64,000 bases of DNA, taken from Isoetes taiwanensis (taxonomy: Eukaryota; Streptophyta; Lycopodiopsida; Isoetales; Isoetaceae). A program made the position numbers and the translations under genes. Positions 1 through 64,000 of this stretch are shown in pieces. Each line of letters opens with the position of its first letter. The first letter of the stretch is position 1. The notes under the pieces were generated by a model, which was given only the letters and a program-made list of their open reading frames with translations, had not been told where the DNA came from and made no database searches. The stretch spans positions 4,761,823-4,825,822 of the forward strand of contig JAJEKV010000025.1 in NCBI GenBank assembly GCA_021234155.1, written 5' to 3'.

Positions 1-1079
1 GCCAGTTACGTAAATTGCTGAGGAAAGGAAGAATGATTATCAATTTCATGTAACTTCACTTTTGAGGTATGACTCAAGTACAATAATCATTATAATTCAC
101 TATGGGTGATCTAAAATGGAGATATACGTAAGAAGCAAATGTAAAGATTGATATAAGATTACCTCGTGATTTTGGCCACTTTGAGATGATTGAGTTTCAA
201 TAGGTTTACCCATGTGTGATAGAGTATGACATATTTAATACAAAATTTAGACTTATTCAAATCTAATAGAAAGACTTCAAGGATGCCATGATAAGACCAT
301 ATGTCTTTTTTAACTCTTGCTTAACTTTTTATAATTTAACTAACTTATCTTTACATGAAAAGGATGGCTATTAATGCAAGGAACTGATTCCATACTAATT
401 TTCACCTACTATATAAAATAACATTTTCATACGTAAAGAACTATATGATTTAAATGTTTGTCTATTCTACTCTATTCTATTCAACCTATTTAAGGAAGTT
501 TCCAAGTTGAATAGTTTATTATTGATGAATCAAATTATAAAATTGCTAAAAATTAATATAAATATATAATTCAACACAATAAACTATATTAAAAATAATC
601 TAAATCATAAATTCCTTTGAGTTAACTAACTTCAATTTTAAACTTTTTAAAAATATTTTTAAGAGTGACAAGAGTTTCCATATAATAATATTAAGTCAAT
701 CAGCTATCAAGCCATCAAGCTTCATACACTTATTATCGATTACAAATTTTATCGATGTTGACTTCCATTCATTTCATATAACCATCTTGGAAAGCAAAGT
801 GGTTCAAGGTTGTTTATAGAGGCGTAAATCGCATCCATGAGATCAAACTTTGGGTTTCTTTTACCGATTGATTCTTGAGAAATGAATGACCCATTTGTTT
901 ATGCTAAACAAGTGAATAGGTTTTCTTTTTGAAAACCCAATTAACCCAACGTGGTGAATTCTAGTTCATGTTGTACCCAAAAGCAGACGCCCCATTGATG
1001 CTACTACGCTAGGAGCCTAACAATGATGGATTATAAAGATGATTGATGATAATATCTTTGACTTGATTAAATCTCTTGT

Positions 1080-1735
1080 GAGCTTGTCACTTCAAAGTCA
1101 GGCTTTTATTGGCACTTTTTGTCATCCTATTGTCACTTCCAACGCCAACTTATTATCACCGATTGGAAACAACTTATCACACTTATAGTCACCCTTTTTG
1201 TCATCTTGTTCTTCCCTTTGTTAGATTCAGGCACCCTATTACAAGACCGCTGACACATTTGTGCCATTTGTTCTTCAACCTCTAAGTCAAAGTTATGACA
1301 TTTCATTGTCACAATATGGTCAAATGTATATCATTTCTCCGCTATTTCTCTCATGCCATTATAAAGTCATTTATTGACATATTTCATACACGGTTTATTA
1401 AGACTATTTTAGTCTATTGTCGAGATGCTGCCATTTGTTGCTACGTTATAGTCGATTATATCACTTGTTTGTCACCATTTTGTCAAGATAAGTCACCCAT
1501 TGTCACATTTTTCACATAGTTTTGTCAAAATCATGTCAATTCTATTTTCACATTATAGTCACATTTTCATCATCCTTTGTCACTTTTTTGTCACTAGTGC
1601 ATCAAGCATATTGTCATATTTATTGTCATTTGATTTCACTATTTTGTCATTGTTGTTTGTCATTTTTGTATGCTTTTTGACACATTATTTAGTGACAAAA
1701 AAAAAAGTGACAATAAATCACTATTCTTGTAGTGA
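1080..1735. repeat. TTGTCA-rich tract of the 2.5 kb unit (first copy)
   Basis: The tract is a degenerate run of short phrases built on ttgtca, tttgtcat and ttgtcac, ending in gtgacaaaaaa and gtgacaataaatcac, so the final part is the reverse complement of the repeated word. Homologous tracts occur once per unit at about 3,540-4,110, 41,090-41,760, 43,540-44,190 and 45,985-46,540. Short plus-strand open frames across it are by-products of the low-complexity composition and do not look like proteins. Confidence 0.75.
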
Positions 1736-2044
1736 GGCAAGATGGTTGCATGAAAAAAAGTCAAGCATAATTCTAATACAAATTTACATAGGTAAAAATA
1801 AAACCAGTAAGAAAAAATATTAAAAACTAAGGTGAGATACATTTTAAATGTACCTTACTAACACGCTTCACTCTTGTAATAATGCAATCATCACTCAAAT
1901 ATAAAACCGTATTGAAGAAGAAACAAATACTATAAGAAACATACAAAAAATACATCATAAATTATAGCTTTTGTGTATTTATTTATACGATAGAATAATA
2001 TAGAACTTTAAAGTCCATCCATTTTATTAAAAGCATGGATATGT

Positions 2045-2690
2045 CTAGGGTAACAATTACTCTCCCCCTCCATTACTCTCTACCTCCCCTCTACCACCAC
2101 GCATGTCCATTGACCCCACGAGTCCCATCTTGACCAAGTCTTTTCTGTCTTTCCAGGTCTAACTATATGGCCCATCCCCTCCTCATACTCCTGACCTCCT
2201 AAATCTCCATTCCTATATTCCCATTCCTCTCTTTCTCTTCCCTTCCTTTTAGGAGCTTTTTCTTTTCCTTTTATTGGGTGGACGAGGTGGGAGGATGAGC
2301 ATAATATGGAGGAGCATTAAACTTGATGAAGTTAGTGGAGGAACTCTGGAGGATTTGATACTAAGCTGGTTATTTTGACCACTTTGAGGTGAAGGAGTTG
2401 GAATATCATAATTGCTACTATTATTTTAACAAGTGGTGAGGGAACAACAAATGTAGGTGGTATATATGGAGGAAAGGAAGAATGATTATCAATTCTATGT
2501 GTAACTCTCACTTTGAGGTGATGGACTTAAAGTACAATCATTATAATTCACTATGGGTGATCTAAATGGAGATATACGTATTAGCTAAATAAAGATTGGA
2601 TATAAGATTACCGTGATTTTGGCCACTTTGAGATGATTGAGTTTCAATAGGGTTTACCCATAGGTGATGGAGTATGACATTTACAAAAAT
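2045..2690 (-). pseudogene. Pro/Gly-rich reading frame of the tandem unit, short form (unit A1)
   Basis: This is a copy of the minus-strand frame described in full at 46,850-47,640. It keeps the Pro-rich part and the PPR-basic stretch but lacks about 170 bp encoding the Gly/Asn-rich middle. The lysosome-like runs of frameshifts make it non-continuous. The same short form occurs at 42,075-42,690 and 44,520-45,120. No homologue is recognised. Confidence 0.4.
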
Positions 2691-4439
2691 TTAGACTTAT
2701 TCAAATCTAATAGAAAGACTTCAAGGATGCCATGATAAGACCATATGTCTTTTTTAACTCTTTTGTTAACTTTTTATAATTTTACTAATCCTATCTTTAC
2801 ATGAAAAGTGTATGATGGCTATTAATGCAAGGAACTGATCTCCATACTAATTTTCACTCCAAATTATATAAAATAATATTTTCTACATGTAAAGAACTAT
2901 ATGATTTAAAATGTTTTGTCTATTCTATTCTATTCTATTCAACCTATTTAAGGAAGTTTCAAAGTTGAATAGTTTATTATTGATGAATCAAATTATAAAA
3001 TTGCTAAAATTAATATAAATATATAATTCAACAATAATAAACTATATTAAAAATAATCTTAAATCATAAATTCCCTTGAAAGTTAATCCAACTTCAATTT
3101 TAAACTTTTTTAAAATATTTTTAAGAGTGCCAAGAGTTTCCATATATAATAATATTAAGTCAATCGCTTATCAAGCCATCAAGTTTCATACACTTATTAT
3201 CGTGATTGCCAAATTTTATTTCCATGTTGACTTCCATTCATTTCATATAACCATCTTGAAAAGCAAAGTGGTTCAAGGTTGTTTATAGAGGTGTAAATCG
3301 CACTTCATGAGATCACATCCTTTGGGTTTCTACTTAGATTGATTCTTGGAGAAATGAATGACCCATTTGTTTATGCTAAACAAGTGGAATAGGTTTTTTC
3401 TTGAAAACCCACTAACCCAACGTGGTGAATTGTAGTCTGGTATTGTACCCAAAGCAGACGCCCTCATTGATGCTACTACGCTAGAGCCTAACAATGATGA
3501 TTATAAAGATGATTGATGATAATATCTTTGACTTCTTGATTAAATTTTGTGAAATAGTCACCCTTTTGTCATCTTGTTCTCTCCCTTTGTTATTAGATTC
3601 AGGCACCCTATTGGCGCGATCGCTGACACATTTGTGCCATTTGTTCTTCAACTTCTAAGTCAAAGTTATGATACTACTGTCAAGCAATATGTATCAAATG
3701 TATATCATTTCTCCTGGCTATTCTCTTGTCATTATATAAAGTCGGGCCTATTGACATATTTTCGAAGCACATGGTTTTGTCAAGACTATTTTAGTCTATT
3801 GTCGAGATGTGTCATTTGTCAAGCATGCTATAGTCGGTTTATATCATTTATTTGTCACCATTTTTGTCAAGATGTTTAATCTATTGTCACATTTTTGACA
3901 CATAGTTTTGTCAAAAATCCATGTCATTCTATTTCCACATTATAGTCATATTTTCATCATCCTTTTGTCACTTTTCACATCGTATCACACTATTGTCATG
4001 TTTATTGTCATTTGATTTCTACTATTTTTGTCATTGTTGTGGTCATTTTTGTATCGGGCTTTTCCTCGACACATTATTTTAGTGACAAAAAAGTGACAAT
4101 AAATCAATTGCTCTCTTGTAGTGAGGCACCCATGGCTGCATGAAAAAAAAGTCACATAATTCTAATACAAATTCTTATATATAGGGTAAAAAATAAACTA
4201 GTAAGAAAAAAAATACAAAACTAGGTGAGATATACATTTTAAAATGTACTCATTAACACTTAATTTGCACAATGCAAGCATCACCAAAATATAAAACCGT
4301 GACAAGAAGAAGCAAATACTAAAAGAAAACATATAAAAATACATCATAAATTATAGTTGTGTATTTATTTATAATGATAGAATAATATAGTGAACTTTAA
4401 AGTCCATCCATTTTATTAAAAGCATGGATATGTCTAATT

Positions 4440-5215
4440 AACGCCACTATCTCCCTCCATTACTTCCTCTTACCTCTACCACCACCATGTCCATTGACCC
4501 CACGAGTCCCATCTTGACCAAGTTTTCTGCCTTTTCCACATGCACCATTGCTAAGAAACTGGGAAGATGATTTTGTTGCTACCATTGCCCCGGGATCCTC
4601 TAGGCCTCCATTCTCATCAAAGGCTGGCCCATTATCTCCCTCTCGGACCTCCGCCTCACCTTTTCATCATGCTTACAGTCCTCCATTGTCTCCATGGGCC
4701 TCCCAGACCTCCGTGGCCCAATCATATGGCCCATTCCCTCCGCTACCTCCCTCGGGACTCCAAATCTCCATTCCCATTCTCATTCCTCTTCTTCCCCTCC
4801 CTTTAGAGCTTTTCCTTTTTATTGGGTGGACGAGGTGGGAGGATGAGTATAATATGGAGGGAGCATTATTACTTGATGAAGTTAGTGGAGGAACTTGAGG
4901 ATTTGATACTAAGTCAGGGTTATTTTGACCAATTTCGAGGTGAAGGAGTTGGAATATCATAATTGCTACTATTATTTTTAACAAGTGGTGAGGAACAAAT
5001 GTTCGAAAGGTATATATGGAGGAAAGGAAGAATGATTATCACTCTGTGTAACTTCACTTTGAGGTATGGACTGAAGTACAATAATCATTATAATTCACTA
5101 TGGGTGATCTTAAAATGGGAGTATTAAGGCTTAAGAAGCAAATGATTGGATATAAGATTACCTTGATTTTACTACTTTGAGATGATTGAGTTTCAATAGG
5201 TTTTACCCATAGGTG
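4440..5215 (-). pseudogene. Pro/Gly-rich reading frame of the tandem unit, long form (unit A2)
   Basis: Long form of the unit's minus-strand frame. It contains the segment absent from unit A1, including the stretch antisense to ttgctaagaaactgggaag near 4,550. A minus frame at 4,673-4,984 shows VPPLTSSSNNAP, then a basic run and a Gly-rich GGSGGNGPYDW segment. Frameshifts separate it from the upstream Pro-rich part. Its position in the array matches the long form at 46,850-47,640 in array B. Confidence 0.4.
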
Positions 5216-5935
5216 ATGGAGTATACATATTTAATAAAATTCAGAATTTATTCAAATCTAATGTAAAGACTTCAAGGATGCCATGATAAGACCATATGTC
5301 TTTTTTAACTCTTGTTAACTTTATAATTTTACTAAATTCATCTTTACATGAAAGTAAGGATGTATATTAATGCAAGGGAACCGATTCCATACTAATTTTC
5401 ACTCCAAATATATATAAAATAATATTTTCATACGTAAAGAACTATATGATTTAAAATGTTTGTCTATTCTATTCTATTCTATTCAACCTTATTTAAGGAA
5501 GTTTCAAGTTGAATAGTTTATTATTGATGAATCAAGTTATAAATTGCTAAAAATCATATAAATATATAATTCAACAATAATAAACTATATTAAAAAATAA
5601 TCTTAAATCATAAATTTTGAGTTAACTAACTTCAATTTTAAACTTTTTTAAAATATTTTTAAGAGTGCCAAGAGTTTCCATATATAATATTAAGTCAATC
5701 GCTATCAAGCCATCAAGTTTCTTCATACACTTATTATCTGGATCGCCAAATTTTAAATTTATTAGATCACCTAAAATTGAAATTTTATATCTCTAAATGT
5801 CTAATTTTAAATAGACTCGATTGAAAAATTAGTCTAGAAAGTAATTTTATGCTTTGATAACCATCATACTTTTTAATCTAAAGATAAGTTTACATAATCA
5901 AAACTTATAAGAGTTATTAAAACCGGGTTGTTATT

Positions 5936-6150
5936 CTCATACACGCAGCTATAATCTTATATCGGTTAATTAGAACGCATCCTCGCCGGATAACGCTTAG
6001 GTTCTCAGGCGTTGGTGCCCAAAGATTAAAGGTGGGTATGATTTGGAACCGTGAAAATGTTGGGGTGCCTACCAACATCAGTATTTGTAACACTTTTTAG
6101 GTATAAACTACTACGGTATCGGGCATGTTATTGCCGCATTCTTCTAAATG
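5936..6150. other. Segment joining array A to downstream DNA, shared with copy B
   Basis: The sequence around ataacgcttagg, gttggggtgcctaccaac and gggcatgttattgccg is repeated at about 48,351-48,535, also immediately downstream of the tandem array. No reading frame is supported. It marks the collinear continuation of the A/B duplication past the arrays. Confidence 0.8.
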
Positions 6151-9100
6151 CCTACATCAATCTTGTTAATTTGGCTTCTTTTCCTTATTTTGGACTAAAA
6201 ACTTTTTTGCATTTTTCGTGTTGATTTTTCTAAGGTTGGGAAATTTTGCTGCGTAAACAATTTCCATTGTCTAAAAAAATTGAGAAATGTTTGTGTGTAT
6301 GATTTATGTTCTGTTTTACATGCAAATACAATTATTTTCGTAGATGTCCACTTAACCTTCTCCTTCCAAGATTTTCAGGTACCGGATATATGAACGTGGT
6401 TTGGGCCGATCGTAAGTATAATGCTGATCTTCATGATGCCAAAGTTAAGGGATTTAATTCTCACGCAAGGATCCTAAGATGCTAGATTAAGGGGTTTAGT
6501 TCTGGCCACGATCTCTAAGGCTGCTTTGCATCCAAATTGAATAGGTCAGTTGTGGTTTACTATAGATCCGGGCCGGTAAGTTATGTACATCCTTCTTTCC
6601 CCACAAGTGGTTGTCTTATGACCAATATACATGATATGCCTATATTGTCACCGCGAAGCTCTGGCTTTACCTCGGCGAAGACCGAACTATTCAATAAGGA
6701 AGACCTTTGGCTTTCATGCAAGAGTATTATCCGGATCCAAACACGAAAAAGGGGCATCACCTTCACATCAAAACTATATAGCAGGTTAGATATATAGCTT
6801 TGAGATTTTAGCCCATAGTTGCAAAAGAAGACACGGTATTAATTCTAACCATTTGTCTTCTACCTTGCAAAGGTTTTATCAGATCATGCCTAAGTGGATG
6901 CCCGCTATCTTTGCTCAAAAGTTGCAAGTGCATTTTTCTCAATCTCACTAATTTTGATGAGCTGTAATACAAACAAATTCCAAGCTCTTACAAAAGAACA
7001 TATTATTCATCATTGGATGCAATTAAGTAAAAAGTGCCCGTGTCAAAGCCCTGCTTCCACGCCCTGCATGCAAACACGCTGCCTCTATGTGGTATTTGCT
7101 TGATATTTAGGTGTACATGTGAGTGCTATCGCTTAGCCTTGATTAAGTTCTTCTTGGACAATTTCTCGAAGTCAATTTGGTCTCTTATTTTAGGTAGATC
7201 CATAAGTCATATATAAGGATGCAGATGGCTATAAATGTCGGAATTGTAAATTGTATTGTTTATTCATAAAAGTTTTGATCCCTTCTCGTAGTTTCTTGCT
7301 CTAAGAATGAGTCATAAAACACACAGAGGAAAGAAGTGCTGGCTCTACTAGAACAATCCCGAGTTGCAATAGTCTATATCTTCCTTCCCCGAAAGTATGA
7401 TTATGCTCTCCACACTAATTTAAGAATAATAAAAAGAAAAGGTTTATGTATTATCTAGCAAAAACAACTTTCTATGAGGGTATAGTATTTGTTTTACCTA
7501 GCCTATGCCGCTACTAGCATTGTGGTGTTGATGCTACTATATTAGCTAAGTTCATCTTCAAGACTATGCATCTTTCTATCTATGATACTAAAATGCACAC
7601 ATCCATGGACCTATCAGCCCAAAGAAGGAACATATAATATCACATTCATTTGTAGTAGAAAGAAGACCGGCTATTTCCACTAGAAGCATGCTAAATCTTC
7701 ATTGTGCAAGTCCAGATAAGTGTGCTGCCTTATTGTCGTGATGAGCTCAGTGGAAAATATTTGATTTCATGCATGGCGTTGGAAAGTCCCAGCTACTCAA
7801 GGATGTATAACTAATTTACTCACATTCTCGCAGCTTCTACCTTTTAATGACAAGATATGACTTTTGAGTTGTGGCATAACCATTGGTAAGTTTGGACTGC
7901 TGACTTAGCCGCTTATTTGGGCACTTAACCCTATTTGACTTGGTGGGCATTTCAAAGGAGTTGATAAGGGCTACAAGTTAGAGATAACAAGGTGTATTTG
8001 GTGATGTGCCCGGCTTTGAGGTAAAATGTTCAAGAAGATGAGGGCTGCGTATGGACAAAATGAACAATCACTAATGCAGCTGTACAGAGATCATTGGTAG
8101 TAGTATCTCTTCCATACATAAATCAAAAATGGAAAAGGGATTCTTCGGAGTGTCCCGATACTCTTGATCGCAAATAATCAAGACCGCCCTCGTAATGCAA
8201 GATAGAATAGAATACAAGAGATGCTGTTTGACGCACGTGCCACCGCCCACGCACGCCGATGGTATGATGTATGATTTGTTTCTCTTTGGAGCACGCAATT
8301 GTGCCTCAGCTTCCTTACAGCTTGTTCTGTCAAGATATATATATCCGAAAGTGTCCACATTTTCAATGGTCCCGGCCTTCAAAAAGCTGGATTTCTATAA
8401 ATATTCGATGCTTCAGATTGTCCCTATTAGTGTGTACAGATAAATAAATTCATTGTTTTGCGCAAAGATTCTTCTTTCAACTAATAGTAGGTTCAGAATT
8501 AGACATGAATAATAGTCAACTCGCAAGTAGCTCTACATAAGTTGTGTCAGCTGTGCAAGGGGTCATGTGTTGATGCTTTTCTTCGACATCTAGCCATGGT
8601 TTGTACCGGCTCTCAGAATGATGAAAAAGGTAAGTCAAACTACAAAACCCCTTCTTGCGTAATCCGTTTGGCAAAGGGAGGTCAGCCGCGAACATTGTTT
8701 TGTTATATAGCAAATTTTCAGCTAACTTATTATGCTTAGTGCCATCTCTGCTCTAGTCAAGATTAAACATATTTGCAATCAATTTGGCCCTGTGAGATCT
8801 CCGCTTTGCTGTGTTAAATAATTCGCTTCGCATAAGGTAAGCTATACAAGCCTTCATTCACTATTTTTGTTCAATCATTATGCTCATGAAGCTGCAACCT
8901 CGCCACAAATAAAGATATCCACTGCATTTTTAGTTTATAATGGCTTACAAGTTGCTTAAGATGGAGGAAAGCTTACATATGATCTTTAACATTGAAATTT
9001 CTATTAGTCTTTTCTTCCATAGTTTTGTTACTGAAAAGAAATTTTTGGATAGTCAAGATTTGTATGGTCAAAGATGGTTTATAAATTGCCATTTTAAATG

Positions 9101-14540: not shown

Positions 14541-14544
14541 ATCT

Positions 14545-18506: not shown

Positions 18507-18827
18507 TCAAATTTAAACTTTTTTTTAAAATATTTTTAAGACTCGTCAAGAGTTTCCATATAATAGTATTAAGTCAATCGCTTATCAAGCCATCGGGTTT
18601 CATACACAAATTATCGTGGATTATGTAAATTTTAAATTTATTAGATCAACTGAAAATTAAAATTTTGTATTCTTGAAATGTCTAATTTTAAATAGATTCA
18701 ATTGAAAATTAGTCTAGAAAGTAATTTTATGCTTTGATAACCATCATACTTTTAATCTAAAGATAAGTTTACATAATCAAAGCTTATAGTTAGTAAAATC
18801 AAGAAAGAGTATACAATGCATATAATC
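18507..18827. repeat. Right-hand fragment of the 2.5 kb unit
   Basis: Matches the end of the unit from aaatatttttaaga through caagagtttccatata, tattaagtcaatcgc, gaaagtaattttatgc and aaagataagtttacataatc (compare about 48,040-48,330). It leads directly into the small secreted-type ORF on the minus strand. Confidence 0.8.
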
Positions 18828-44519: not shown

Positions 44520-45120
44520 TAACGCTAATTACCTCCCTCCATTACTTCTACCTCCTCTACCACCACGATGTCCATTGACCCCACGAGTCCCATCTTGACC
44601 CAAAAGTCTTTTCGCTTTTTCTGTGGCCCAATCATATACTTCCATCCTCTCCACCTCCTGACCTCCTAAATTCCATTCCCTATATTCCCATTCCTCTTCT
44701 TCCCTTCCCTTTAGAGCTTTTTATTTTATGGATCGAGGTGGAGGATGAGCATAATATGGAGGAGCATTAAAACTTGATGAAGTTAGTGGAGGAAACTTGA
44801 GGATTTGATACTGTCGGTTATTTTGACCACTTTGAGGGGTGAAGGGAGTTGGAATATCATAATTGCTACTATTATTTTTAACAAGTGGTGAGGGAACAAC
44901 AAATGTAGGTGGTATATATGGGAGGAAAGGAAGAATGATTATCAATTTCATGTGTAACTTCACTTTGAGGTGATGGACTTAAGTACAATAATCATTATAA
45001 TTCACTATGGGTGATCTAAATGGAGATATACGTATAGCTAAATAAGATTGATATAAGATTACCCATTTTGGCCACTTTTGAGATGATTGAGTTTCAATAG
45101 TTTACCATAGGTGATGAGTA
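44520..45120 (-). pseudogene. Pro/Gly-rich frame of the tandem unit, short form (unit B2)
   Basis: The minus frame at 44,721-44,963 shows PYIPPTFVVPSPLVKNNSSN, then DIPTPFTPQSGQNNR and APPYYAHPPPR, the same order as in the long form. It lacks the Gly/Asn-rich middle. Confidence 0.45.
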
Positions 45121-46849: not shown

Positions 46850-47640
46850 GTCTAATTAACGCTAATTATCTCCCCTCCATTACTTCCTCTACCTCCCTCT
46901 ACCACCACCATGTCCATTGACCCCACGAGTCCCATCTTGACCAAGTTTTTCCTTTTTCCACATGCACCATTGCTAAGAAACTTAGAAAGATGATTTTGGT
47001 TGCTACCATTGCCCTCTCGATCCTCGAGGCCTCCATTCTCATCAAAGGCGCGTCCATTATCTCCTGGACCTCCAGTCTCACCATCATGCTTACACCCTCC
47101 ATTATTCCATGGGCCTCCTGCACCTCCAGGGCCCAATCATATGGCCCATTCCCTCCCTATCCCCTGGACCTCCTAAATCTCCATTCCCTATATTCTCATT
47201 CCTCTTCTTCTTCCCCTTCCCTTTAGGAGCTTTTCCTTTTTTATTGGGTGGACGAGGTGGAGGATGAGCATAATATGGAGGAGCATTATTACTTGATGAA
47301 GTTAGTGGAGGAACTTGAGGATTTGATACTAAGCTGGTTATTTTGACCACTTTGAGGTGAAGGAGTTGGAATATCATAATTGCCACTATTATTTTTAACA
47401 AGTGGTGAGGGAACAACAAATGTAGGTGGCATATATGGAGGAAAGGAAGAATGATTATCAATTTCATGTGTAACTTCACTTTGAGGTGATGGACTTAAAG
47501 TACAATAATCATTATAATTCACTATGGGTGATCTAAATGGAGATATACGTATAGAAAAACAGATTGGATATAAAAGATTACCCATTTTGGCCACTTTGAG
47601 ATGATTGAGTTTCAATAGGTTTACCCATAGGTGATGGAGT
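46850..47640 (-). CDS. Pro-rich then Gly-rich reading frame of the tandem unit, best copy; unknown
   Basis: Three overlapping minus-strand frames give one continuous pattern of about 250 residues. From N to C: HTPSPMGKPIETQSSQSGQN; a stretch with PFRSPIVNYNDYCTLSPSPQ; PPYMPPTFVVPSPLVKNNSG; DIPTPSPQSGQNN; VPPLTSSSNNAPPYYAHPPP; a basic KKGKAPKGKGKKKR; then a Gly/Asn/Asp-rich part (GDLGGPGD, GGCKHDGETGGPGDNG, DENGGLEDREGNGSNQ). It needs two or three frame changes, near 47,335 and 47,125, to stay open. No signal peptide or start codon was fixed. Composition recalls structural wall or matrix proteins, but I recognise no family. It may be a degenerate coding exon amplified with the unit. Confidence 0.4.
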
Positions 47641-48350
47641 ATGACATATTTAATAAAATTTAGACTTATTCAAATCTAATAGAAAGACTTCAAGGATGCC
47701 ATGATAAGACCATATGTCTTTTTTAACTCTTGTTAACTTTTATAATTTTACTAACTTATCTTTACATGAAAAGTATGATGGCTATTAATGCAAGGAACCC
47801 GATCTCCATACTAATTTTCACTCCAGTCTATATAAAATAATATTTTCATACGTAAAGAACTATATGATTTAAATGTTTGTCTATTCTATTCTATTCTATT
47901 CAACCTATTTAAGGAAGTTTCAAGTTGAATAGTTTATTATTGATGAATCAAGTTATAAAATTGCTAAAAATTAATATAAATATATAATTCAACAATAATA
48001 AACTATATTAAAAATAATCTTAAATCATAAATTTTGAGTTAACTAACTTCAATTTTAAACTTTTTAAAATATTTTTAAGAGTGCCAAGAGTTTCCATATA
48101 ATAATATTAAGTCAATCGCTTATCAAGCCATCAAGTTTCGTACACTTATTATCGTGATTGCCAAATTTTAAATTTATTAGATCACTGAAAATTGAAATTT
48201 TATATCCTCAAATGTCTAATTTTAAATAGACTCCGATTGAAAATTAGTCTAGAAAGTAATTTTATGCTTTGATAACCATCATACTTTTAATCTAAAGATA
48301 AGTTTACATAATCAAAACTTATAAGAGTTATTAAAATCAAGAAAGATTAC

Positions 48351-49680
48351 TAGAACGATCCCGGCCAAGGATAACGCTTAGGTTTGTAAGTGTTGGTGCC
48401 CAATTATTGCTAGGTATGATTTGGAAACCGTAAAATGTTGGGGTGCCTACCAACATTGCATTGTAACACTTTTAGAAGGGAATTGTTTCTTGATGGTATT
48501 GGGCATGTTATTGCCGATTCTTCTAAATGCTTATTATTAACTGGTTTTAACTTTTCGCTTGTGAATAGAGACTTAAAAGTTTAGCTATGAAAAGAGGATG
48601 AGGATGCTTTCTTTGTTTGATATTCTTTCTTTTGTTCAATGTCTTAATATTCTCTATGAATAGCATTTGAATATAAGGATAATAGCTTTCAATGTTAGAT
48701 CTCAACAATAATCTTATCATATGCCCAGCTAGGGCAATAAGGTGCAAACTTAACTAATAAGCTCGCATTGTCATTCAAATTCAGAGATCGAAATTGGAAG
48801 CATGTGATAGATGATGTGTGCATAGGTTGAATGTTCAAAAAAACATTTAGCATATAGAAAACCAAGTTTGCTATTGTTGTAACGCCCATAAAAGAGTATT
48901 TTCCGTAATTACTTTGACTTGCAACCACTTGAAGCAACTATGAATCAACCCAGATGTAGATAAATCTTCGAGAGGCCATATGCAAAATAACTATAAATTG
49001 ACAACACTTTCGGTCCTATTGCTAACACAATCATTCTTCACGTTAAAAATGCTAACCGTTAATATCTTCAGCCCATTGCTTCTTCGCACCAAATAAAGCT
49101 CTTGAGTAATCTACTATGGAAGGAAAAAATGAAACACATAATCTAGCTCTACTATAAACACATAATCTAGCAGGATCAAGCTAGCCATGCAAAGAGACAA
49201 CATTAAAACACAATATGCCATGTTTGAAATAGGTACATTCACAGTTCATGATCATGAATTTAAGACATGCCTCTAAAGATAGAAATTTGATCAGGCTTTA
49301 ACTCACACTCCGTAAGCAAATACATATGACCTACATATCTTACGATCCTTACATTATAGATTAAAACTTGGCTAAGAGTATTAGGTAGATATTCCTTTGC
49401 TCTGTACAAAAAGCAAGTAAAACAAAGTTATTATTGTTTCTCAAAGATTAAAACCAACTAAATAAACCAAAGAAACAAAACCAAGAGGACCAACATGATA
49501 ACATGATAACATGACACCAATTACAATCTGAGTTACCTTATAAATCTTGTGCCTACACATAAAGGGTCCACTGTTCCACCATCGCTGTTGCGAAATCTAC
49601 AACCCACACCATAACACGTAAGGGCTAGATGATGCCCACATGGCATGATATAATCTTAGCCCCAATCTAGGGCGAGGTTC
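48351..49680. other. Shared segment (copy B side)
   Basis: Collinear with 5,936-6,150 plus 10,725-11,850. Minus-strand frames at 48,547-48,747 and 48,695-48,937 are open but are not conserved as frames in copy A, so no gene is called. Confidence 0.7.
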
Positions 49681-52429: not shown

Positions 52430-53540
52430 ATGGAAAGAACATCGTGGCTCTAGCTACCATCGCCATGTAATTTTTATGGCAATAACACGTATTTTCTTGT
52501 GTAGACTTATAATTATTGTAGGTAGGACTTTAAAACTTATTATTCTTTTATTTTAGGTCGACAATTTGGTAGTGTTCAAACAACCTAGTAGGCAATCTTC
52601 AATAGTGATTTTTTTTTTTCCTCCCCCCCTCCCCCCCTTTTTAGCACGCTAGCCCAATCAAACTTGCACCTTTCCTTTTGTAGCCTATCCACATCGCGAT
52701 CTCCACCTCATCAAGATCCAATGAAGTATAGGAGAGAAACATTGATTCTCTATTTTCTGATCCAAGGGCCATTAAAATTAGATAAGGCTTAAATTTACAA
52801 CACGGAGATGGCAGAGGTCACGCTTTATCCGACTCAAATCTGTCCCGTCAGTTTTTCCTCGCTTGCTTGTATCCCTCCCCTTTTTCTAACTCTCGTGCAA
52901 ACTTTTCTCACAAGGCTTTTTCCTTTCTCTCGGGTTATACTCAGATTTCTATCATGATTCAACTCGACAAAGCAAAAGGACCATTTTGCAATTATCTTTT
53001 TTCTTTTCGTAGGAGTTTTGGTACATAATTCATAATTTAGCTTGCAAGGTACAAGTCTTTTGATTGCATATATTTGCTCTTAGAAATACTTTTGCACCCA
53101 TTGATCTTGAGTTGAAGTGGCACATATTTCACCTGCTTATTTTGTAGGAATGCAAACCCCTTCTTGCAGTGTGAATTAATGATATTTCGCGGACCAACTT
53201 CTTTTCATCCGACATGTCTCGATATAATGAGTATTGTCACTTTCATTACATACCTGGAATCTTTACCACGCAAAGGTATATTAAATGAGCTTCAGCTAAG
53301 TACTTGTTTTCTGATATTGTAGTTAGACTCAGAGATGTTGCATCTTGCTTATTGCCAACACCGCATGGTTGAGTTCGATATAGAAGTCAATCATGCGCTA
53401 CTACCAAAGTAGTATGCCCATCGTTTGGCATGATACTTCCGTCAGTCCCGCATGATAAGAAGACTTTGAGGAAATGGATACTAGTATGGAACTTGAAGAT
53501 GATATTGAAAGCTCTCCTTTCGACTGATGTACGTGATCTC
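52430..53540. repeat. ~1 kb family, single copy in copy B
   Basis: Collinear with 12,380-14,540 but present once instead of twice. It ends at gatctcttgc, where L1 sequence starts. Confidence 0.8.
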
Positions 53541-56500
53541 TTGCTTGGTAATATTTCATGTGATACCGTCCATATTGAATTTCAAGATTACTATTGTATG
53601 TTTTATGAAGAGAGGTGGAGGAAATGGAGAAATCACCTGCCAGTAGCCCCACTATCAATTGCATTCATTATTGGTGTCTTTCACAACTCGTAAAGCATTC
53701 GATGCTATTGTTTTGGATAGTTGATGCACGGAGCAAAACAACATATTGCATCATATTGATTCGCCTTTGATATCAAGTCTCAGGTAACCTCTGTTCATAT
53801 GGTGTTAACACCCAATTTACAATTCTTGTATGATACGGGGTCAAAGCATGTTGAAGTGGATCAAAATTGTGCATTTTTTCCGCTACATTTGTAATGCCAC
53901 ATTTGTAGTCTACTTTCAAAGAGAATACCCAAGCTCTTTTGAGAATAAGCGTGCAGAGGAGCAAACTATGACATACTCTTCAAGGATATTCCACGTAGTT
54001 CGAAAGATCGAGGAAGAACCACCGCGCCTAATGAGAGGGAGATCTTGGAAACACTAAAATCTATGGAATGCCTCACAGTTACATCCCCGCAATTAATGCA
54101 GGCACATCATTATGATTCCTAAGGTGGATACCCCTCGTGTTCTCGGGAGAGATTGGAGACCCATCACACCCACTAATACAAGCTATAAGATCCTAGCCAA
54201 AATGATGGCTAATTGTGCTTAAATGTGTTTTTATATAAGCCGATTAGTCCGCGTCAATCCAGATTCCTCACCAAAGGAATATATCGACAATTATATAGGA
54301 GCAAATCAAGGCTTGCATTGGAACAAATTGTCGCCAGAATGCATGCTATCGAAGCTTGACTTTCGTCAGAGATATATGACACCATTGATTGAGAGGTTCT
54401 ACAAAGGCCATAGCACACCTTTGGTTTCCCGTGACACCATATACAAACAAAATTTGTAGTTTCAATGCTAATGCTTCATCTCAATTACATATTAATGGTA
54501 CTCCATCCAAACCTTTCCAATGCCGTAGGGTGAGGCAAGGATGCCCACCGGCCCCATACTTATTCTTGATCATTGCTGAAATGGTCACTAGAATGGCTAT
54601 TAGTTTACGGTGAAAGGAAGCTAATTAACAAATTTGAAGATGCCACAAGGGGATGAGGACTTCCAATAATGCAATATGCTGATGACACCTTTGTGTTTCT
54701 TAAGCATGGAGATAATAGTTTGCCAAATTTCCTCGAGGCAATTGATAAATTTGGAGTCGTCAGTGGAGTTATGTTAAATAAAGCAAAAAAGTGCAATAAT
54801 TTATGACACTACGGAGGCAACTATCCAAGGCATCAAGGTTCGATAACAAGGCAGCTACAAAGATTTTGGGATCCCTCTTTGCTCTCAACCACTTTTACAT
54901 GGACCGTGGGAACCTATAGTCTCCGTGGATTAAGGAAAACTCCATAGGTATCCTTCCACTTTTATCTCTTGGCCGAAGAATTGAAATTGCTAACTCGGTG
55001 GATTTGTAGTACACATGTGTTTTCCTCGCCTGTAGGAGATAAGGCCTTACAATCAAATTGAAAAGGATTATCGTGAAGTTCATATGGCAAGGGTCACACA
55101 AAGTAGCATGGTCGATTTGGTCAAACCAAGGAAAGATGGGGGGTCCTTGCAAGAACCCGCTCATACAAGCTCAAGCCTTAGCTGCCAAGATGGTGTGGAG
55201 AGCTTCCTATACCCTTAACAGACCATCTCCCCGCCTCTTAAGCTCATCGATATTGGTTGCAGGTTTCTACCCTCCTGGGAGTGTCACTCTCAAGCATTGT
55301 CTACCGGATTCAAATTCTTCAGGGCTTGACTCCAGGCCCCTGAACATCCAATATAATGAGAAGAATCTTGATGCATGGAATAATGCTGCATTATGCTACA
55401 GACCACCTCGCTTGGATGCCGGAGTAAAGATACCAACTTCTTCTCGCACCTCGATGAAGCCCCCGAGGGCATTGGTTGCTTGGCCCTTCAATACCCTCGA
55501 AGTACATGCAATGGTTTAATGCGTGTATTACCAAAATTGAAGATCTAAGGACTCTTCTAATAGACTACCACCGGAGGAGATTAAAAACGTAATCCAAAGG
55601 TTCAAATAGATAAAAAGATCTACCATCTCATTATGGAACATATGGGAGGATACCGTGAACTTAGCCGCACAAGAATCAATGGCGCTTGAACAAAAAAGAA
55701 GTATATTCTACACAAAGACATCTACAGGGCCTTACTTGAAAGAAAACCATCCAAAGCTACTCTACTATGGGATTGTGAGGAGGACAAATTAAGTTCTGCT
55801 TTGTGCAAAAGGCCGAAAAATATACACCGCTACTAGGATCAAGACCTTCAAAATGGATTGCTTTGCATCGAAGTCTAGCCACCAATCATAATCGAGCCAA
55901 ATATGATCACACCGTGACAAGCCAATGCAAATTATGTGGGGAAGTAGAGAACTCAAACCATGTTTTTGTATGCAATTGGTTGCTAGAGTTTTGAGCTGAC
56001 AACACAAATTAATAAGGAGTGCCAACTATTAATAATTTGCTTTCCTTTGGGGACAATGGTAGCAAAGTGGTCAACACTATGAGAACTCGGACTTGTTGGG
56101 CTATATGGTTACACGTAAAACAGAGTTATGATTGAGATTATGCACCATCTATGATTTGGCCGAAAAGAACTTTTTGTTGATCTTATCCAAATCTCGCCAT
56201 TGCCCACAAAACACTAAAGGGGAAAAATATGATACGTAATGGGACAAAGATTGGTTCTTTTAAGGGACCATTTGAATTTTTATACTAAAACTAACATTAT
56301 CTCCATGATGTTTTGCAATGTAGGCTATGAGGAGACTCAATAGAGCAGAAGTTTACTAGAGGAATGGGCAAAGCGTAAAATTGGACGCAGGAGGAGGCTA
56401 TGTTGTCTCATACTCAAATGGAGGACATCTTCATCCAACCAAGCAAGAGATGATTCACGCCCATCAAGAAGTTAATCAAGAGGGAAGAGGTTTGAGGAAT

Positions 56501-56909
56501 AACGGGCCGCAGGCCTTTCTTCCCTCAACCCTGCTTCATGCATGGCAAAGAAAAGGGAGGCACATGTGCCCTTCCGCTAGATTTCACTAATTTCCCTTTG
56601 TGAGGAGCCTGACCCATCAATATCTATGGTAGACCTAGGGTGGCAAACCCCCATACATATCAGATAGCAAAGACAAGAAGGTTTCGTGTTCCCAACCCAT
56701 TTTCCTCGATATAACCGCATTCTGCAAGTTTAAAACCTTTAAAGTTTATATTCACCCATGATAGGAGTTCTTTTGGACATGTTAGAATCAGATTAAGATG
56801 CAACTCTTTGGCATATCTTTTTCCAATGGATATACCCTTTTGATGTACTTATGTTAGTATGAATACCAAAAAAATCCTGCCTTCAAAAAAAAAAAAAAAA
56901 AAAAAAAAA
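53541..56909 (+). mobile_element. 5'-truncated L1-type LINE (copy B)
   Basis: Paralogue of 14,545-17,877, ending in a 25-nt poly-A at 56,885-56,909. It is the better copy for the catalytic centre: a RVRQGCPPAPYLFLIIAEMV segment (near 54,520-54,590) and QYADDTFVFLKHGDNS with YADD at 54,675-54,686. Later come MLNKAKSA, IVKFIWQGSHKVAWSIW (55,058-55,130) and the zf-RVT region with CKLCGEVENSNHVFVCNW (to 55,985). The upstream part shows the start of the reverse transcriptase (DWRPI, SYKILAKMMAN near 54,150-54,215). No endonuclease is seen. Many frameshifts; not autonomous. Confidence 0.85.
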
Positions 56910-57063
56910 TCTATATAAAATAATATTTTCATAATTATCTAACTATATGATTTAAATATTTATCTTTTCAACCTATTTAAAGGAAGTTTCGTTGAATAGT
57001 TTATTATTGATGAAGCAAATTATAAAATTGTTATAAATTAATAAAATATATAGTTCAACAATA
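56910..57063. repeat. 2.5 kb unit fragment next to the L1 tail (copy B)
   Basis: Same junction as 17,878: unit sequence tctatataaaataatattt resumes directly after the poly-A. The identical junction in both copies shows the L1 was there before the A/B duplication. Confidence 0.8.
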
Positions 57064-57563
57064 ATAAGATAAGATAAGATAAGATAAGATAAGATAAGAT
57101 AAGATAAGATAAGATAAGATAAGATAAGATGAATTTTACATCCACGAAACCCAACGGTTATGGGATCTGCATACATGGCAAGCAAATAAACCATCTAAAA
57201 ACCTGGACTAGGCCCCATCACCAAACACAATAACCAAATATTAAAAGGCTACCAATAATAAGATAAGATAATGCTAATGCTAGTGGTAAATTTATGCTTC
57301 TAAAATTATCTAGACATAGCCACCCAAGGATTGGAAGGCCATTGATCTAGAATAATTGTTGCGCTACATTAGACGCCAATTTCTTTTGCGGTATGGGCTG
57401 CCCTCACCTTGCAGATCCTCCTTACTACACAATAATTGAAGAGGGAGAGGTCCCTCCCATATGAGAAACTAGTCCCTCTGAGATGGTTTCCATGTTGAAG
57501 AACATGTTTTTACTAAGAGTGTCTTGAAAACCAACCAAAAGATGGCAAGGACGATCAAATAAA
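57064..57563 (-). mobile_element. LINE 3'-end fragment with expanded (AAGAT)n tail (copy B)
   Basis: Paralogue of 18,039-18,506. The (aagat)n run is about 65 bp here against about 28 bp in copy A. The rest is collinear, to gacgatcaaataaa. Confidence 0.6.
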
Positions 57564-58299
57564 CTTCAAATTTAAACTTTTTTTTTTTAAAATATTTTAA
57601 GACCGCCAAGAGTTTCCATATAATAGTATTAAGTCAATCGCTTATCAAGCCATCGGCCGATTATTAAATTTTTAAATTTATTAGATCACTAAAAATTGAA
57701 ATTTTGTATTCTTGAAATGTCTAATTTTAAATAGATTCAATTGAAAATTAGTCTAGAAAGTAATTTTATGCTTTTATAACCATCATACTTTTAATCTAAA
57801 GATAAGTTTACACATTCTCTCAAACCTTATAGTATTTTGCAAACCTTAATATACAGAAAACAAAACCCTGTACATGCATACCCCACAAACGAGGATCGCT
57901 ATGTATGGTCCGTAGATCTTGGAATAAAGGGCAATATGCCCATCCGACAGAAGGCGACTTTTCCTATGTAACCCTCGGTGAATATGCACCCAAACCAAAG
58001 GGGTTTAAGGGGGATTTTAATTTAAATGTGTTAAATGCAATGGTTTGTGCTAGATATTGTTAATGGTAGTTGTGTGTTTATTGTTAAAAACAATTTGGGC
58101 CCTTCGGGCCCTAACTAAAGCAAACATAAGGTAAACTTTATGGGCCTAAATATTAATTACTAATATCTAGCATTATAAAAAGCACAATAACATCAAGACA
58201 AACAAATTATTGAGTACATTTTATGTAGTCATTATATTCATTATCCTGTAATTTCAATATTGCAATACAAGAATCATGTAAACTATTGTAAATTGTCAT

Positions 58300-59965: not shown

Positions 59966-60286
59966 AACCCTAAATGAACCCTAAAAATAATGGGAGGATA
60001 TTCACAACCAAAGACAAAAAGCCCCCACCGCAGGATTTGCCCCTTTCCAAAAATCAATCGGCTACAAAAGGGTGCACTCTAGAAATACTATTTAGTACAC
60101 CTGATGAATAAGGCCACCAAATCATATGAAAACCTTAGAGAAAACAGTACAAAAACACAAAAAGAAACCCCCTGTTATAATGCTACATATTCAAAGCTTA
60201 TAGTTAGTAAAATCAAGAAAGAGTATACAATGCATATAATCTTATAATGGCATCCTTGAAGTGCTATTTATTAAATATAAATAAGT

Positions 60287-60744
60287 CTATATTTTGTTGA
60301 ATATATCATGAGTTCTAGCTATAGGGGATACAACATGTAAAGCTGGTGATGAAGTTTGAATAGATTTATTAATAGGTGATGATGGACTATCAATTATAGA
60401 TGAGTTTGGTGTTGGGCTTGAAAGTGGTATTTTATTTGGAGAAGTTTGCATTGGGTTAGAAGAAGAAATTGAATTCTGAATAAGTTTAGTCGTAGGGTGT
60501 GGACTTGATAATGAGCTGGATGATGCTGATATCGGGCTTGGAAGAAGAGCTTCAAGAGGGCATATGCATGAATATTTAGAACTTTGTTGGTTTCTCGTCT
60601 TATAGCTTCCTATATGTAAATCCATAAAATAGCCATTGCCTTGATACACTCTTATGCCATGCTCACCATTTTGAAATCTTGAATTTTGAGGGCCATGGTT
60701 GTGAAGATGCTAATAAACATTAGAAACAAGTTTGCAAACGCCAT
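60287..60744 (-). pseudogene. Small Ser/Pro-rich secreted-type ORF (copy B, second), one frameshift
   Basis: Paralogue of 18,828-19,295, nearly identical over residues 34-137. The hydrophobic start is present at 60,744, but cacc replaces cagtc near 60,664, shifting the frame between the signal peptide and the body. The C-terminus reads HVVSPIARTHDIFNKI then stop, and is probably the ancestral end because copy A has a small deletion there. The frameshift is at a CAG and may be a sequence error, in which case this would be an intact ~150-residue gene. Confidence 0.55.
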
Positions 60745-61636
60745 TATATCTACGAGGATAAACTAGAAAAGCACAATTCGCTTAGGATTATGTTCTTTTT
60801 GTACTAATAAAAGAGAGCTGATCATGGAAAGAACATGAGAGCTCTAAATAGCACCATCATGTAATTTTTATGGCAACAACACAAATATTTTCTAGTCTAG
60901 ACATATATAATTAAAAGAGCTTTTTAGAGGGCATATGCATGAACCATGGCCCTCAAAATTCAAGTTTCAAAAGGACATGACGTAAGAGGTATCAAGACAT
61001 ATATAATTAGAAGAGCTTCGTGGAGGGCATATGCATGACCTTTTTGAGAATTAGGGCCATTCCTTTGATCAAAGGAATTATTAATGGAATAATGTAGTTC
61101 GATGGATCTTACAAGTTGTACCCTGATCCGCTTTTCTTTTTTTTTTTTTTCATTTTGACAAATTTTGAAGTGCAAGTGTAGCATCCAAGCATCTTTTGCA
61201 AGAGTTCAAGTGCGTATTTGATGTATTGTATAATCGTGGTTCAAGTGCGCATTTGAAGTATTGTGTACATGTTAATGAGAGATATACGATGAAGACCTTT
61301 ATTGTCTTCATAAGCATCCTAATTTTACTTTTTTTGGGTAATGTAATTCATTATCCAACATTCTTAGAAAAAATCGAAAAATCCTTCTAATCGAAATGAA
61401 CACATTTATGTTTATGAGTTCGTAATTAAGTGAGTGAGAATTTGTGCAAATGCGAAAAAATGTTTGCCACATTTCCTCTATTATTTTTCTCTGCATCCTT
61501 TGGTTTGGGCATGTTTTTCCGAAGAAATTACTTTACAATTAATACCAGAGAACTAGAGCATTTGCTATTCAAAGATTACCAAGATAATACAAAACCAATG
61601 CCATTGAGGCTATATATTTGCACAAACCAAGATGTG
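60745..61636. other. Shared non-coding segment (copy B)
   Basis: Collinear with 19,296-20,164. No reading frame is conserved between the copies. Confidence 0.7.
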
Positions 61637-63206
61637 ATAACCAATTATTATCGACCATTGATTAATCAATTAATAACTACCATTGACATTAATTAACACA
61701 ACCAACTCCAACACATTTAAATTAAAACCCCCCCCTGGTTTGGGTGCATATTCACACCTGGGTGACCGCAACGAGCTCTGGATAGGCATATTCACCCCTT
61801 ATTCCTTAATCTACACCGCACGAAGTTCCTCGCTTGTGGGGTATGCAAGTACAAAATTTTGCTATAATTGTATAACAAGATTTGCAAAATACTATAAGAT
61901 TTCAAGCCAAATACTATATGGTGTTGATTTCGTGACGCAAAATACAATTATGAGGGCTCTCGCCTTCCCACGCCACCCCCCGGTGAATATGCACCCAAAC
62001 CAAAGGGGGTTTAAGGGGGATTTTAATTTTAAATGTGTTGGACCCAATGGTTGTGTTAATTAATGTCAATGGTAGTTATGTGTTGGTTGTTAATGTCAAT
62101 GGTTGTTATGTTGGTTGTTATGTGTTGGGGATTTAATTTTATATATTGGATGTTAATAGTTTGTGTTGCAAAATTTTGACTCCCTTCGGCCTTTAGGACG
62201 CCACCCCTCCCCCTGGTGACAAAAAATTTTAGAATTCAAACCAAAAACTAGAATTCATTTGAGGCTTTCGTAGCTTTTGAATTTCATCACAATAAAACAA
62301 ATAGAACATAAGTAAAGCTACCATAAAGATAGAGCATTGATCCCATTATTCTCAAAGTCATAAAGTTTGCAACACCCATATACAAACATTTTTCAACTGA
62401 ATTTAAAAGCAGCCTTTGTCCTCCAAGGATCTTGTGGTGAGAAACTAAAGTGGAAAACTTTTCTCGCTTGTTAGCACAAGGATCTAGAAGCCTTGAATTT
62501 GCTTAATAACGCCTCAAAATCTAAAAATGCATGGTAATTTTTGCAAGCTTCATTCGAGATGAGCCATAAAACAATATCCAATAGCTAACTCAGATTAATC
62601 ACCGTAGGATGTGAAAGCCTACCAAACCCGGCCGAAAAATTGCTGTTTAGCATACATAGCTTAACCAAACATATCCATATCATACACTTTATCAAAAGAT
62701 CTGAGAGTGCTTTCCAACGCAATAAAAAATCATCTCAAAACGAGGCTTTGGATCAAAAGTTATAATAAGAAATGTGTTGCCATTGAAACCGCAGACTACA
62801 CGCCCTTCAAGCCCCTTCATGTGCCCATTATGCACCACACACACAAAAAGAGGGCTTTTGTTGTGAGCCATTGGTTGTTGACCATTATGCACCACACGCA
62901 CAAAAAAGGGCTTTGTCAGGAGCCATTGGTTTTCAAGCCCTTCACGTGCCCATTATGCACCACACAAAAAAAAGAGGGCTTTTGTTGTGAGCCATTGGTT
63001 GTTGACCATTATGCACCACACGACAAAAAGGGCTTTTGTTGGGGAGCCATTGGTTGTGACCATCAAAAAAAAAAAATCAACGGCTCGTAAACGGTGCACT
63101 CTGACGACGCATTAGTATATCCATTCAATACATCACGAAATCATAAAACCTTAAATAAAAGCCGCATAAAAACACAAAAACGAAAACCCCTCATATTATG
63201 CTACAT
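61637..63206 (+). mobile_element. Element E3 (foldback plus long body) inserted in copy B
   Basis: Replaces about 40 bp of copy A (20,165-20,207). It opens with the foldback arms (61,650-61,758 and 61,981-62,165), then cttcggcctttaggacgccacc, gcaacacccatatacaaaca and gatgtgaaagcctacc, and ends with four copies of the gagccattggttgttgacc repeat (62,820-63,065) and cccctcatattatgctacata. E1 is the inverted relative. The frame at 62,707-63,090 is the repeat read through and is not a gene. Confidence 0.65.
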
Positions 63207-64000
63207 ATGGAAGACTAAGCAGCAAGTTGATGTCTTGAGATTTATGTCTTTAAATGACGAAAACAAAAAAGAGCTTTTCTAAATTATAAGAGATATGCTT
63301 TGTAATTGGAGGTGTTATTTGTTTTCGACTACATTGTTGAAAATATATTGGTGGTATTGACCTAACAACTTTTAAGTATATAATTGTTCACGCATGCTTA
63401 ATTTGGTATAGGATTTTTTGGGATTTAATAATATGAGAAGGATTTAAGGTCCATCTTTAGTGTTTTCAACAACATTATTGATACGGACAAACACAATATG
63501 CATATACACATGGTAACTAATGATGCATATTGTACAATCATAATGCATATAGACATAGTTTCTAATCATAAATGTTGTACTACATTCTTGAAATAATGTG
63601 ATTATGTCAAAAGTTCATTGAAGTAGCGTTCTTTGGGTGGTAATGTCTCGGCACACATTTACTATAAATACACAACCTCTACTTATGTGCAAAAGAAAGG
63701 ACTACTTTCAAGGTAATAAAAATTGTTGTTAAGTTCAAGCTTAATTAGGTGAACCTTACATGTAGCAATTATATAAAATCGGAGCACCCATATAAACCAT
63801 TTACTACAATGACTCTTCATTCCTGTGTTCAATACTTTCATATAGAAGCTAATGTCCTACTCGAATCTTACTTTTTGTTTGTATGTTTAAATATGTAAAT
63901 ACCACATGTCCTTCGTCTTTTATATATAACTGCAAGGGTTGAATCCCATAACCTATGTGGGCAAAGATACAATGACCATTTCAATGTATTTTGTAAGTTT
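63207..64000. other. Shared flank (copy B), running off the window
   Basis: 63,207-63,420 matches 20,208-20,428 and 63,421-64,000 matches 25,732-26,320, so this is the uninterrupted form of the site that holds the 5.3 kb aldo-keto reductase block in copy A. Confidence 0.85.

What the first reader, a model, noticed from the sequence alone, without database searches (positions are those of the whole stretch)
1..64000. Small differences between paralogous copies cluster at CAG/CTG, suggesting base-calling error at CHG-methylated cytosines
Where two copies can be aligned, one often has CTG or CAG and the other a scrambled CCG, CG or deletion. Examples: gctgaaaag (17,121) vs gccgaaaag (56,159); gggctgaggcc (17,470) vs gggccgcaggcc (56,503); ctgtcagattgg (23,029) vs ccgtcgattgg (21,573); gcactggacc (23,232) vs gaccgacc (21,775); ctcagtcat (19,213) vs ctcaccat (60,661); tatgctgatgac (54,675) vs tatgtcaacatgac (15,625); cactccagtctat (42,866, 47,820) vs cactccaaatat (5,399) and cacccatat (45,297). 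The YADD codon at 37,050 also lacks the T of an expected CTG. Plants methylate CHG densely in repeats and long-read callers can fail there. If right, many 'pseudogenes' here are artefacts.
Basis: partly seen in the sequence, partly recalled or inferred. Interest (0 to 1): 0.75.

Follow-up and report, generated by a model that had tools for sequence, protein, structure and literature searches.

The report
Nanopore errors at methylated CAG/CTG sites
In repeat-rich parts of this plant genome assembly, CAG and CTG triplets have been scrambled, most likely because the nanopore base-caller misread methylated cytosines there, so some apparent mutations and broken genes are probably sequencing artefacts.

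Summary
The 16 quoted places are in the window. In 43 self-alignments CAG/CTG (CWG) is the least conserved trinucleotide: 476 of 664 disrupted against 23% overall. CWG is also depleted to 0.49 of expectation; the next lowest trinucleotide is 0.87. In HSP70 copies the changes are mostly indels and multi-base changes, not deamination, and often create CpG.

The strongest test is a locus present on two contigs (C1066/C1079). A 2.5 kb stretch over a tubulin gene is near-identical, 0 of 83 CWG changed. In the flanks one copy has lost 65 of 100 CWG against 6.8% of other non-CpG trinucleotides. The window's spectrum matches that locus (rho 0.79), not three ordinary sets (0.17-0.39).

Assembly size and sequence count fit Isoetes taiwanensis, sequenced with R9.4.1, Guppy 3.1 flip-flop, racon and Pilon. 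Default Guppy models are reported to fail at methylated CCWGG.

Limits: CWG changes are 389 of 2,855 window difference events; four of seven contig pairs show no excess. No reads or methylation data were available, so methylation as cause is inferred.

The parts
20..6154 (+). repeat block, paralogous to 42491-48533 (88.5% identical); CWG almost erased (5-6 per kb)
   Evidence: alignment: 261 gap openings and 283 mismatches; 53 of 59 CWG not conserved; O/E 0.28 for the first 4 kb
40757..48533 (+). repeat block with several local copies of the same family; CWG 3.5-5 per kb
   Evidence: O/E 0.23 at 40-48 kb; six full-length matches of 44001-44600 (itself included), all on this contig, among 40 of 180 candidates scored
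13429..18790 (+). repeat, relatively CWG-rich copy of the pair with 52464-57833
   Evidence: 114/156 CWG changed (both directions) vs 25.5% of other non-CpG trinucleotides
52464..57833 (+). paralogous copy with scrambled CWG
   Evidence: 6 CWG in the piece at 56039 where 19 of 22 compared copies have 18-27; 2 of 26 majority CWG kept
20549..23477 (+). two tandem copies (20549-22014, 22019-23477; 94.5% identical), milder CWG disruption
   Evidence: 26/76 vs 9.2%; O/E 0.81 at 20-24 kb, the highest 4-kb bin in the window
18770..20184 (+). repeat copy, pair with 60184-61638
   Evidence: 15/29 CWG vs 10.3%
60184..61638 (+). repeat copy, pair with 18770-20184
   Evidence: 15/29 CWG vs 10.3%
23350..23943 (+). 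aldo/keto reductase fragment (one TAG inside), the only Pfam match in the 10 ORFs scanned of 16 listed; lies in the 2 kb with the highest CWG density (22-24 kb, 33 per kb)
   Evidence: (C1029:4785172-4785765)

Best explanation
The scrambled CAG/CTG sites are consensus errors of the assembly, not mutations. In silenced repeats the C on both strands of CWG is methylated by the plant CHG pathway (inferred). The R9.4.1 signal of 5mC in that context was foreign to the Guppy 3.1 flip-flop model, which tended to replace it by a CpG-containing or length-changed word such as CGG, CG, CGT or CGAG (products shown; a link to a model that knew 5mC mainly in CpG is inferred). Because the miscall is systematic, consensus building with racon keeps it. 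Pilon could repair it only where short reads map well, so the genes tested are clean while repeats, or a second copy of a locus, are not (inferred from the pattern).
For: Depletion of CWG to O/E 0.49 in the window, every other trinucleotide >=0.87; O/E 0.92 in 7 stop-free HSP70 copies, 0.59 in 13 stop-bearing ones. Stop-bearing HSP70 copies against the nearest stop-free one: CWG changed in 200/504 vs 1517/16810 other non-CpG trinucleotides; three stop-free pairs of 96-97% identity give 42/460 vs 1026/10308. At CWG in stop-bearing copies 13.9% indels and 8.7% multi-base changes, but 3.2% C>T and 3.2% G>A. CWG-loss events create a CpG in 91/164 (HSP70) and 179/381 (window, counted in both directions), against 21/359 and 295/4930 of other events. 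Non-deamination products agree by sequence context between HSP70 and the unrelated window repeats: score 61, shuffled mean 36.9, 5 of 2000 shuffles as high. Locus on two contigs: 83 of 83 CWG kept in the near-identical 2.5 kb; beyond it 65 of 100 lost in one direction, 7 of 42 in the other. Spectrum correlation with the window 0.79-0.80 for that locus and stop-bearing HSP70, 0.17-0.39 for three ordinary sets; without CpG trinucleotides 0.69-0.70 against -0.19 to 0.14. Methods passages of PMC8566536 and the precedent at Dcm sites (passages of PMC6591954).
Against: No reads, raw signal or methylome were available. CpG contexts are also disturbed (CG 37.7%, CCG 49.6% changed in stop-bearing HSP70) and natural CpG deamination is mixed in; in that set three trinucleotides, none of them non-CpG, rank above CAG. 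42.6% of window differences are neither CWG, CpG nor homopolymer. Of seven contig pairs four show no excess at CWG (OR 0.9-1.3), one is borderline (OR 1.6, p 0.054) and one weak (OR 2.2). In stop-free HSP70 pairs 6 of 18 CWG-loss events also create CpG by ordinary substitutions, and in stop-bearing copies 42 events gain a CWG against 164 that lose one. The reference HSP70 copies (L026 for 12 of 13, L028 for one) themselves differ from stop-free relatives by 10-13 gap openings, so they may hold errors; the clean control pairs come from another HSP70 subgroup, and choosing stop-free copies disfavours indels. In the 600-bp repeat family 50 of 105 CWG changes are simple deamination types. The better copy of the two-contig locus is itself low in CWG in its 5' flank (O/E 0.57). 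The genome's name is inferred; 1,110 contigs here against 1,113 sequences in the paper.
Confidence: 0.85

Rival explanations
1. Unpolished nanopore error independent of methylation: the caller was weak at CAG/CTG anyway and Pilon fixed it only in unique DNA.
For: Clean stretches include genes and near-single-copy DNA, where short reads map; homopolymer errors accompany the CWG errors.
Against: Default-model errors at CCWGG in bacteria are attributed to Dcm methylation missing from the training data and nearly vanish after custom training (PMC6591954 passages). CAG/CTG stands out from trinucleotides of the same composition, such as ACT-type and GAC-type ones.
Confidence: 0.1
2. Real mutation: methylated CHG cytosines deaminated over time in old repeat copies.
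For: CAA and TAG products exist (31 and 19 of 105 CWG changes in the 600-bp family); CpG sites show deamination products.
Against: In HSP70 and at the two-contig locus most products are indels, multi-base changes or CpG gains. More diverged copies of one family keep 15-17 of 26 CWG (background change 0.37-0.50) while the window copy at 56039 (0.33) keeps 2. The change has an edge within one locus and is one-sided.
Confidence: 0.03
3. Alignment artefact or real subfamily differences between repeat lineages.
For: Gap placement is ambiguous in diverged pairs; the 43 window pairs used are 80-96% identical.
Against: Depletion of CWG needs no alignment. Pairs of similar identity aligned the same way show no excess (L058/59 OR 0.9, L064/65 OR 1.0).
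Confidence: 0.02

Closest known systems
Dcm-motif (CCAGG/CCTGG, 5mC) consensus errors of R9.4 nanopore basecallers (Wick et al. 2019, PMC6591954; passages seen)
   Same: 5mC in a CWG context, R9.4 pore, ONT default models, error survives in the consensus; about 70% of consensus errors of then-current ONT basecallers lay in Dcm motifs
   Different: There bacterial CCWGG only, Guppy up to v2.2.3 and a known truth sequence; here any CWG in plant repeats, with CpG-creating products, in an assembly already passed through Pilon
Reduced nanopore accuracy on native plant DNA (PMC9749173, passages seen; review PMC7501810, passages seen)
   Same: Methylation or base modification named as a likely cause of lower accuracy on plant DNA; species-specific models help
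   Different: PMC9749173 holds no word beginning with CHG or CTG (0 occurrences), and the passages seen give no product spectrum

Membership tests
Methylation-motif basecalling error (nanopore R9.4, untrained 5mC context) | Errors concentrate in one short methylatable motif | tested here: met
   CWG 0.72 disrupted vs 0.23 overall; 65/100 vs 272/3994 at the two-contig locus; CpG and homopolymers also affected
Methylation-motif basecalling error (nanopore R9.4, untrained 5mC context) | Native DNA, R9.4 pore, model of that time | tested here: inconclusive
   Methods passages of PMC8566536 fit, but that G000 is that assembly is inferred: 1,658,258,908 bases vs 1658.30 Mb, 1,110 contigs vs 1,113 sequences
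Methylation-motif basecalling error (nanopore R9.4, untrained 5mC context) | Error products are reproducible for the same sequence context | tested here: met
   HSP70 vs window products agree by context, 5 of 2000 shuffles as high
Methylation-motif basecalling error (nanopore R9.4, untrained 5mC context) | Affected sites carry 5mC in the sequenced tissue | not testable with these tools
   no methylation data or raw signal
Methylation-motif basecalling error (nanopore R9.4, untrained 5mC context) | Independent short reads contradict the called sequence | not testable with these tools
   no reads; the second copy of one locus serves as a partial substitute
Natural 5mC deamination | Changes are C>T / G>A at the methylated position | tested here: not met
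   in stop-bearing HSP70 64 of 400 CWG changes (strand-doubled counts) are simple C>T or G>A; in the 600-bp family, all copies pooled, 50 of 105

The most novel reading that the evidence does not exclude
The caller reads 5mC outside CpG as if it had to be followed by G, so CWG becomes CpG-containing words. A finished assembly then carries a readable, low-resolution map of CHG methylation: local CWG depletion with CpG gain would mark silenced, unpolished DNA in older nanopore plant assemblies without any raw data.
Probability: 0.45. Interest if true: 0.6.

Novelty: new member of a known kind. Interest (0 to 1): 0.45.

Why it matters
If right, repeat ages, LTR divergence, pseudogene and frameshift counts, and CHG-context statistics taken from this assembly, and perhaps from others of its time, are biased. 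In the divergent part of the two-contig locus the copies differ by 110 substitutions and 63 indels in 4.26 kb, about 4% apparent divergence, much of it apparently artefact. Of 12 readable 4-kb samples (round positions that I chose on long contigs), 6 had a CWG observed/expected ratio below 0.65, so the affected part of the genome may be large. A simple CWG observed/expected scan would flag such regions.

Tried and rejected
Plastid insertions as truth: the rbcL hits gave a low-GC plastid contig and a plant-type plastid stretch too far from it (89% identical in rbcL) to serve as a truth pair. Stop-free HSP70 pairs of all identities were too diverged to serve as a control, so only the three 96-97% pairs were kept. 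Natural deamination, alignment artefact and methylation-free caller weakness were considered and ranked low (see rivals). The divergent part of L066/L067 was delimited after seeing the profile; over the whole aligned pair the excess is 23.4% for CWG against 4.3% for CHH. The other six pairs: OR 0.9, 2.2, 1.2, 1.0, 1.6, 1.3. A search for the assembly by contig number found nothing. Searches for a printed account of CHG-specific nanopore miscalls in plants listed none by title or shown start of abstract, but the listings were cut (20 of 137 and 15 of 2,633 papers) and only five papers were opened, each by term search, so absence from print is not shown. A C/T over A/G excess on the window's + strand (913 vs 484) stays unexplained; HSP70 shows none (179 vs 182) and the divergent part of L066 36 vs 26 (sums).
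Full report
Observation. The window aligned to itself gives 47 blocks of at least 200 columns; the 43 of at least 80% identity were used. They hold 2,548 substitutions and 1,812 gap runs, far more indels than I would expect of ordinary repeat decay (general knowledge, not tested). Over all trinucleotides CAG/CTG is the least conserved: 476 of 664 disrupted against 22.9% overall. The next are the CpG-containing ones (CCG 70%, CGA 62%, CGC 58%, ACG 47%), then CCC at 38%. In the window as a whole CAG/CTG is found 755 times against 1,528 expected from its dinucleotides (0.49); every other trinucleotide is at 0.87 or more. By 4-kb bins the ratio runs from 0.23 to 0.81, highest at 20-24 kb, where the one Pfam match found lies (aldo/keto reductase, 23350-23943, one TAG inside; 10 of 16 listed ORFs scanned).

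What the changes look like. In one 600-base piece of a repeat family (two window copies and the 20 best-scoring other copies), 19 of 22 copies hold 18-27 CWG. The window copy at 56039 holds 6 and two genomic copies hold 10 and 15. The copy at 56039 keeps 2 of 26 majority CWG; 6 of its changes are simple deamination products, 16 are others and 2 are missing. Copies that are more diverged elsewhere (background change 0.37-0.50) keep 15-17. So loss of CWG is a property of particular copies, not of divergence. Over all 22 copies together 50 of 105 CWG changes are simple deamination types, so natural deamination is present too.

Coding test with HSP70. Seven stop-free and 13 stop-bearing HSP70 copies were cut, 20 of the 88 matches listed (55 of 865 candidates scored). 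Against the nearest stop-free copy, CWG is changed in 200 of 504 cases and other non-CpG trinucleotides in 1,517 of 16,810; three stop-free pairs of 96-97% identity give 42 of 460 and 1,026 of 10,308. In stop-bearing copies 13.9% of CWG carry an indel and 8.7% a multi-base change, against 2.5% and 0.9% of CHH; simple C>T and G>A are 3.2% each. Of 218 indels there, 108 lie at or next to a CWG, where 38 are expected. The claim that some apparent pseudogenes are artefacts is thus supported in number. Whether any given copy is sound was not tested. Caveats: the reference copies themselves differ from stop-free relatives by 10-13 gap openings and may hold errors, and the clean control pairs are another subgroup, chosen for lack of stops.

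Direction of the miscall. Events that lose a CWG create a CpG in 91 of 164 cases in HSP70 and 179 of 381 in the window (counted in both directions), against 21 of 359 and 295 of 4,930 for other events. Ordinary substitutions give 6 of 18 in stop-free HSP70 pairs; in stop-bearing copies 42 events gain a CWG. The commonest non-deamination products of CAG are CGG, CG, CGT, CGA and CA in HSP70, and CG, CGT, CGAG, AG, CGG and CA in the unrelated window repeats. By flanking context the two sets (81 and 164 events) agree better than 1,995 of 2,000 shuffles.

A locus on two contigs. Seven pairs of 10-kb stretches from contigs that share a gene hit or a sampled stretch were compared over their alignable parts. 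In one (C1066/C1079, tubulin gene) 2.5 kb are near-identical, with 2 substitutions, 1 indel and 83 of 83 CWG kept. Beyond this, and in the other flank, one copy has lost its CWG: 56 losses against 3 by column; by trinucleotide 65 of 100 lost, while 7 of its own 42 are absent from the other copy. Of 102 difference events there, 63 include a CWG of the better copy within two flanking bases. CWG observed/expected in the main divergent stretch is 0.39 in one copy and 0.90 in the other, in the 5' flank 0.39 and 0.57, and 0.99 in both in the clean part. I know of no mutational process that would stop at such an edge and act on one copy only. The flank belongs to a modest repeat family (39 matches). 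Of the other six pairs one shows a weaker excess (OR 2.2, p 7e-5), one a borderline one (OR 1.6, p 0.054) and four none; those four look like ordinary allelic or paralogous divergence (inference). The window's trinucleotide loss spectrum correlates 0.79 with the divergent part of this locus and 0.80 with stop-bearing HSP70, but 0.18, 0.17 and 0.39 with stop-free HSP70, L058/59 and L064/65.

Where the genome comes from. G000 has 1,658,258,908 bases in 1,110 contigs. The Isoetes taiwanensis assembly is 1658.30 Mb in 204 scaffolds plus 909 contigs. It was made from R9.4.1 reads called with Guppy 3.1 flip-flop, assembled with minimap2/miniasm, polished with racon and Pilon, gap-filled with LR_Gapcloser, from plants grown non-axenically under water (passages of PMC8566536). 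A low-GC plastid contig (C840, 27.6% GC over 9 kb; an alga is my guess) and a plastid rbcL copy whose start codon reads ACG fit this, since that paper reports much RNA editing in the plastome. The identity is an inference.

Mechanism. Shown: motif-specific, indel-rich, CpG-creating, context-reproducible, copy-specific change, at one locus with a sharp edge. Inferred: 5mC at CHG in silenced DNA gives a signal that the model of that time had not learned; the consensus keeps a systematic miscall; Pilon removes it only where short reads map. The precedent is the failure of ONT default models at Dcm-methylated CCWGG, about 70% of consensus errors there, nearly cured by custom training (passages of PMC6591954; Guppy up to v2.2.3, not 3.1). 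For plants the passages seen expect lower accuracy from methylation or modification (PMC9749173; PMC7501810); PMC9749173 holds no word beginning with CHG or CTG. Passages of PMC8514461 were seen for background on plant CHG methylation. A caller weak at CWG without methylation cannot be excluded from the assembly alone.

Limits. CWG changes are 389 of 2,855 window difference events; homopolymer-length changes are 753, CpG-involving 470, CWG in both copies 27, other 1,216. CpG contexts are affected too. Twelve readable 4-kb samples at positions I chose (3 of 15 read N) range from 0.23 to 0.97 in CWG observed/expected, 6 of 12 below 0.65. A middle piece of the lowest-ratio sample is repeated (73 matches, 40 of 874 candidates scored); one of the highest has two full-length matches, itself included, among 21.

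Noticed in passing
L001 (C840:16001-25000): A 34.6-kb contig with a plastid rbcL, 27.6% GC over the 9 kb read and 89% identical in rbcL to the plant-type copy on C1052: perhaps plastid DNA of a contaminating green alga (guess, not compared with algae).
   Followed up: partly
L002 (C1052:5412001-5421000), around 5287 on the - strand: Plastid rbcL/atpB stretch inside an 11-Mb contig; rbcL is open but its start codon reads ACG, as expected where C-to-U editing makes the AUG.
   Followed up: partly
C1068:3.97-4.41 Mb, C1055:7.1-7.3 Mb, C910:3.4-3.6 Mb, C1029:11.7-11.8 Mb: Local clusters of HSP70 copies, several without stops and many with stops (88 matches listed for the genome, a lower bound).
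   Followed up: partly
window 20-6154 and 40757-48533: A repeat family with six full-length matches of a 600-base piece, all on this contig within about 93 kb, while its first ~205 bases are dispersed over the genome (40 of 180 candidates scored).
   Followed up: no
window, self-aligned blocks: C/T differences outnumber A/G differences on the + strand (913 vs 484); HSP70 copies show no such excess (179 vs 182). Unexplained.
   Followed up: partly
L066 flank (C1066): Besides CWG, several CGT in the better copy read CGC in the other, a possible second systematic context.
   Followed up: no
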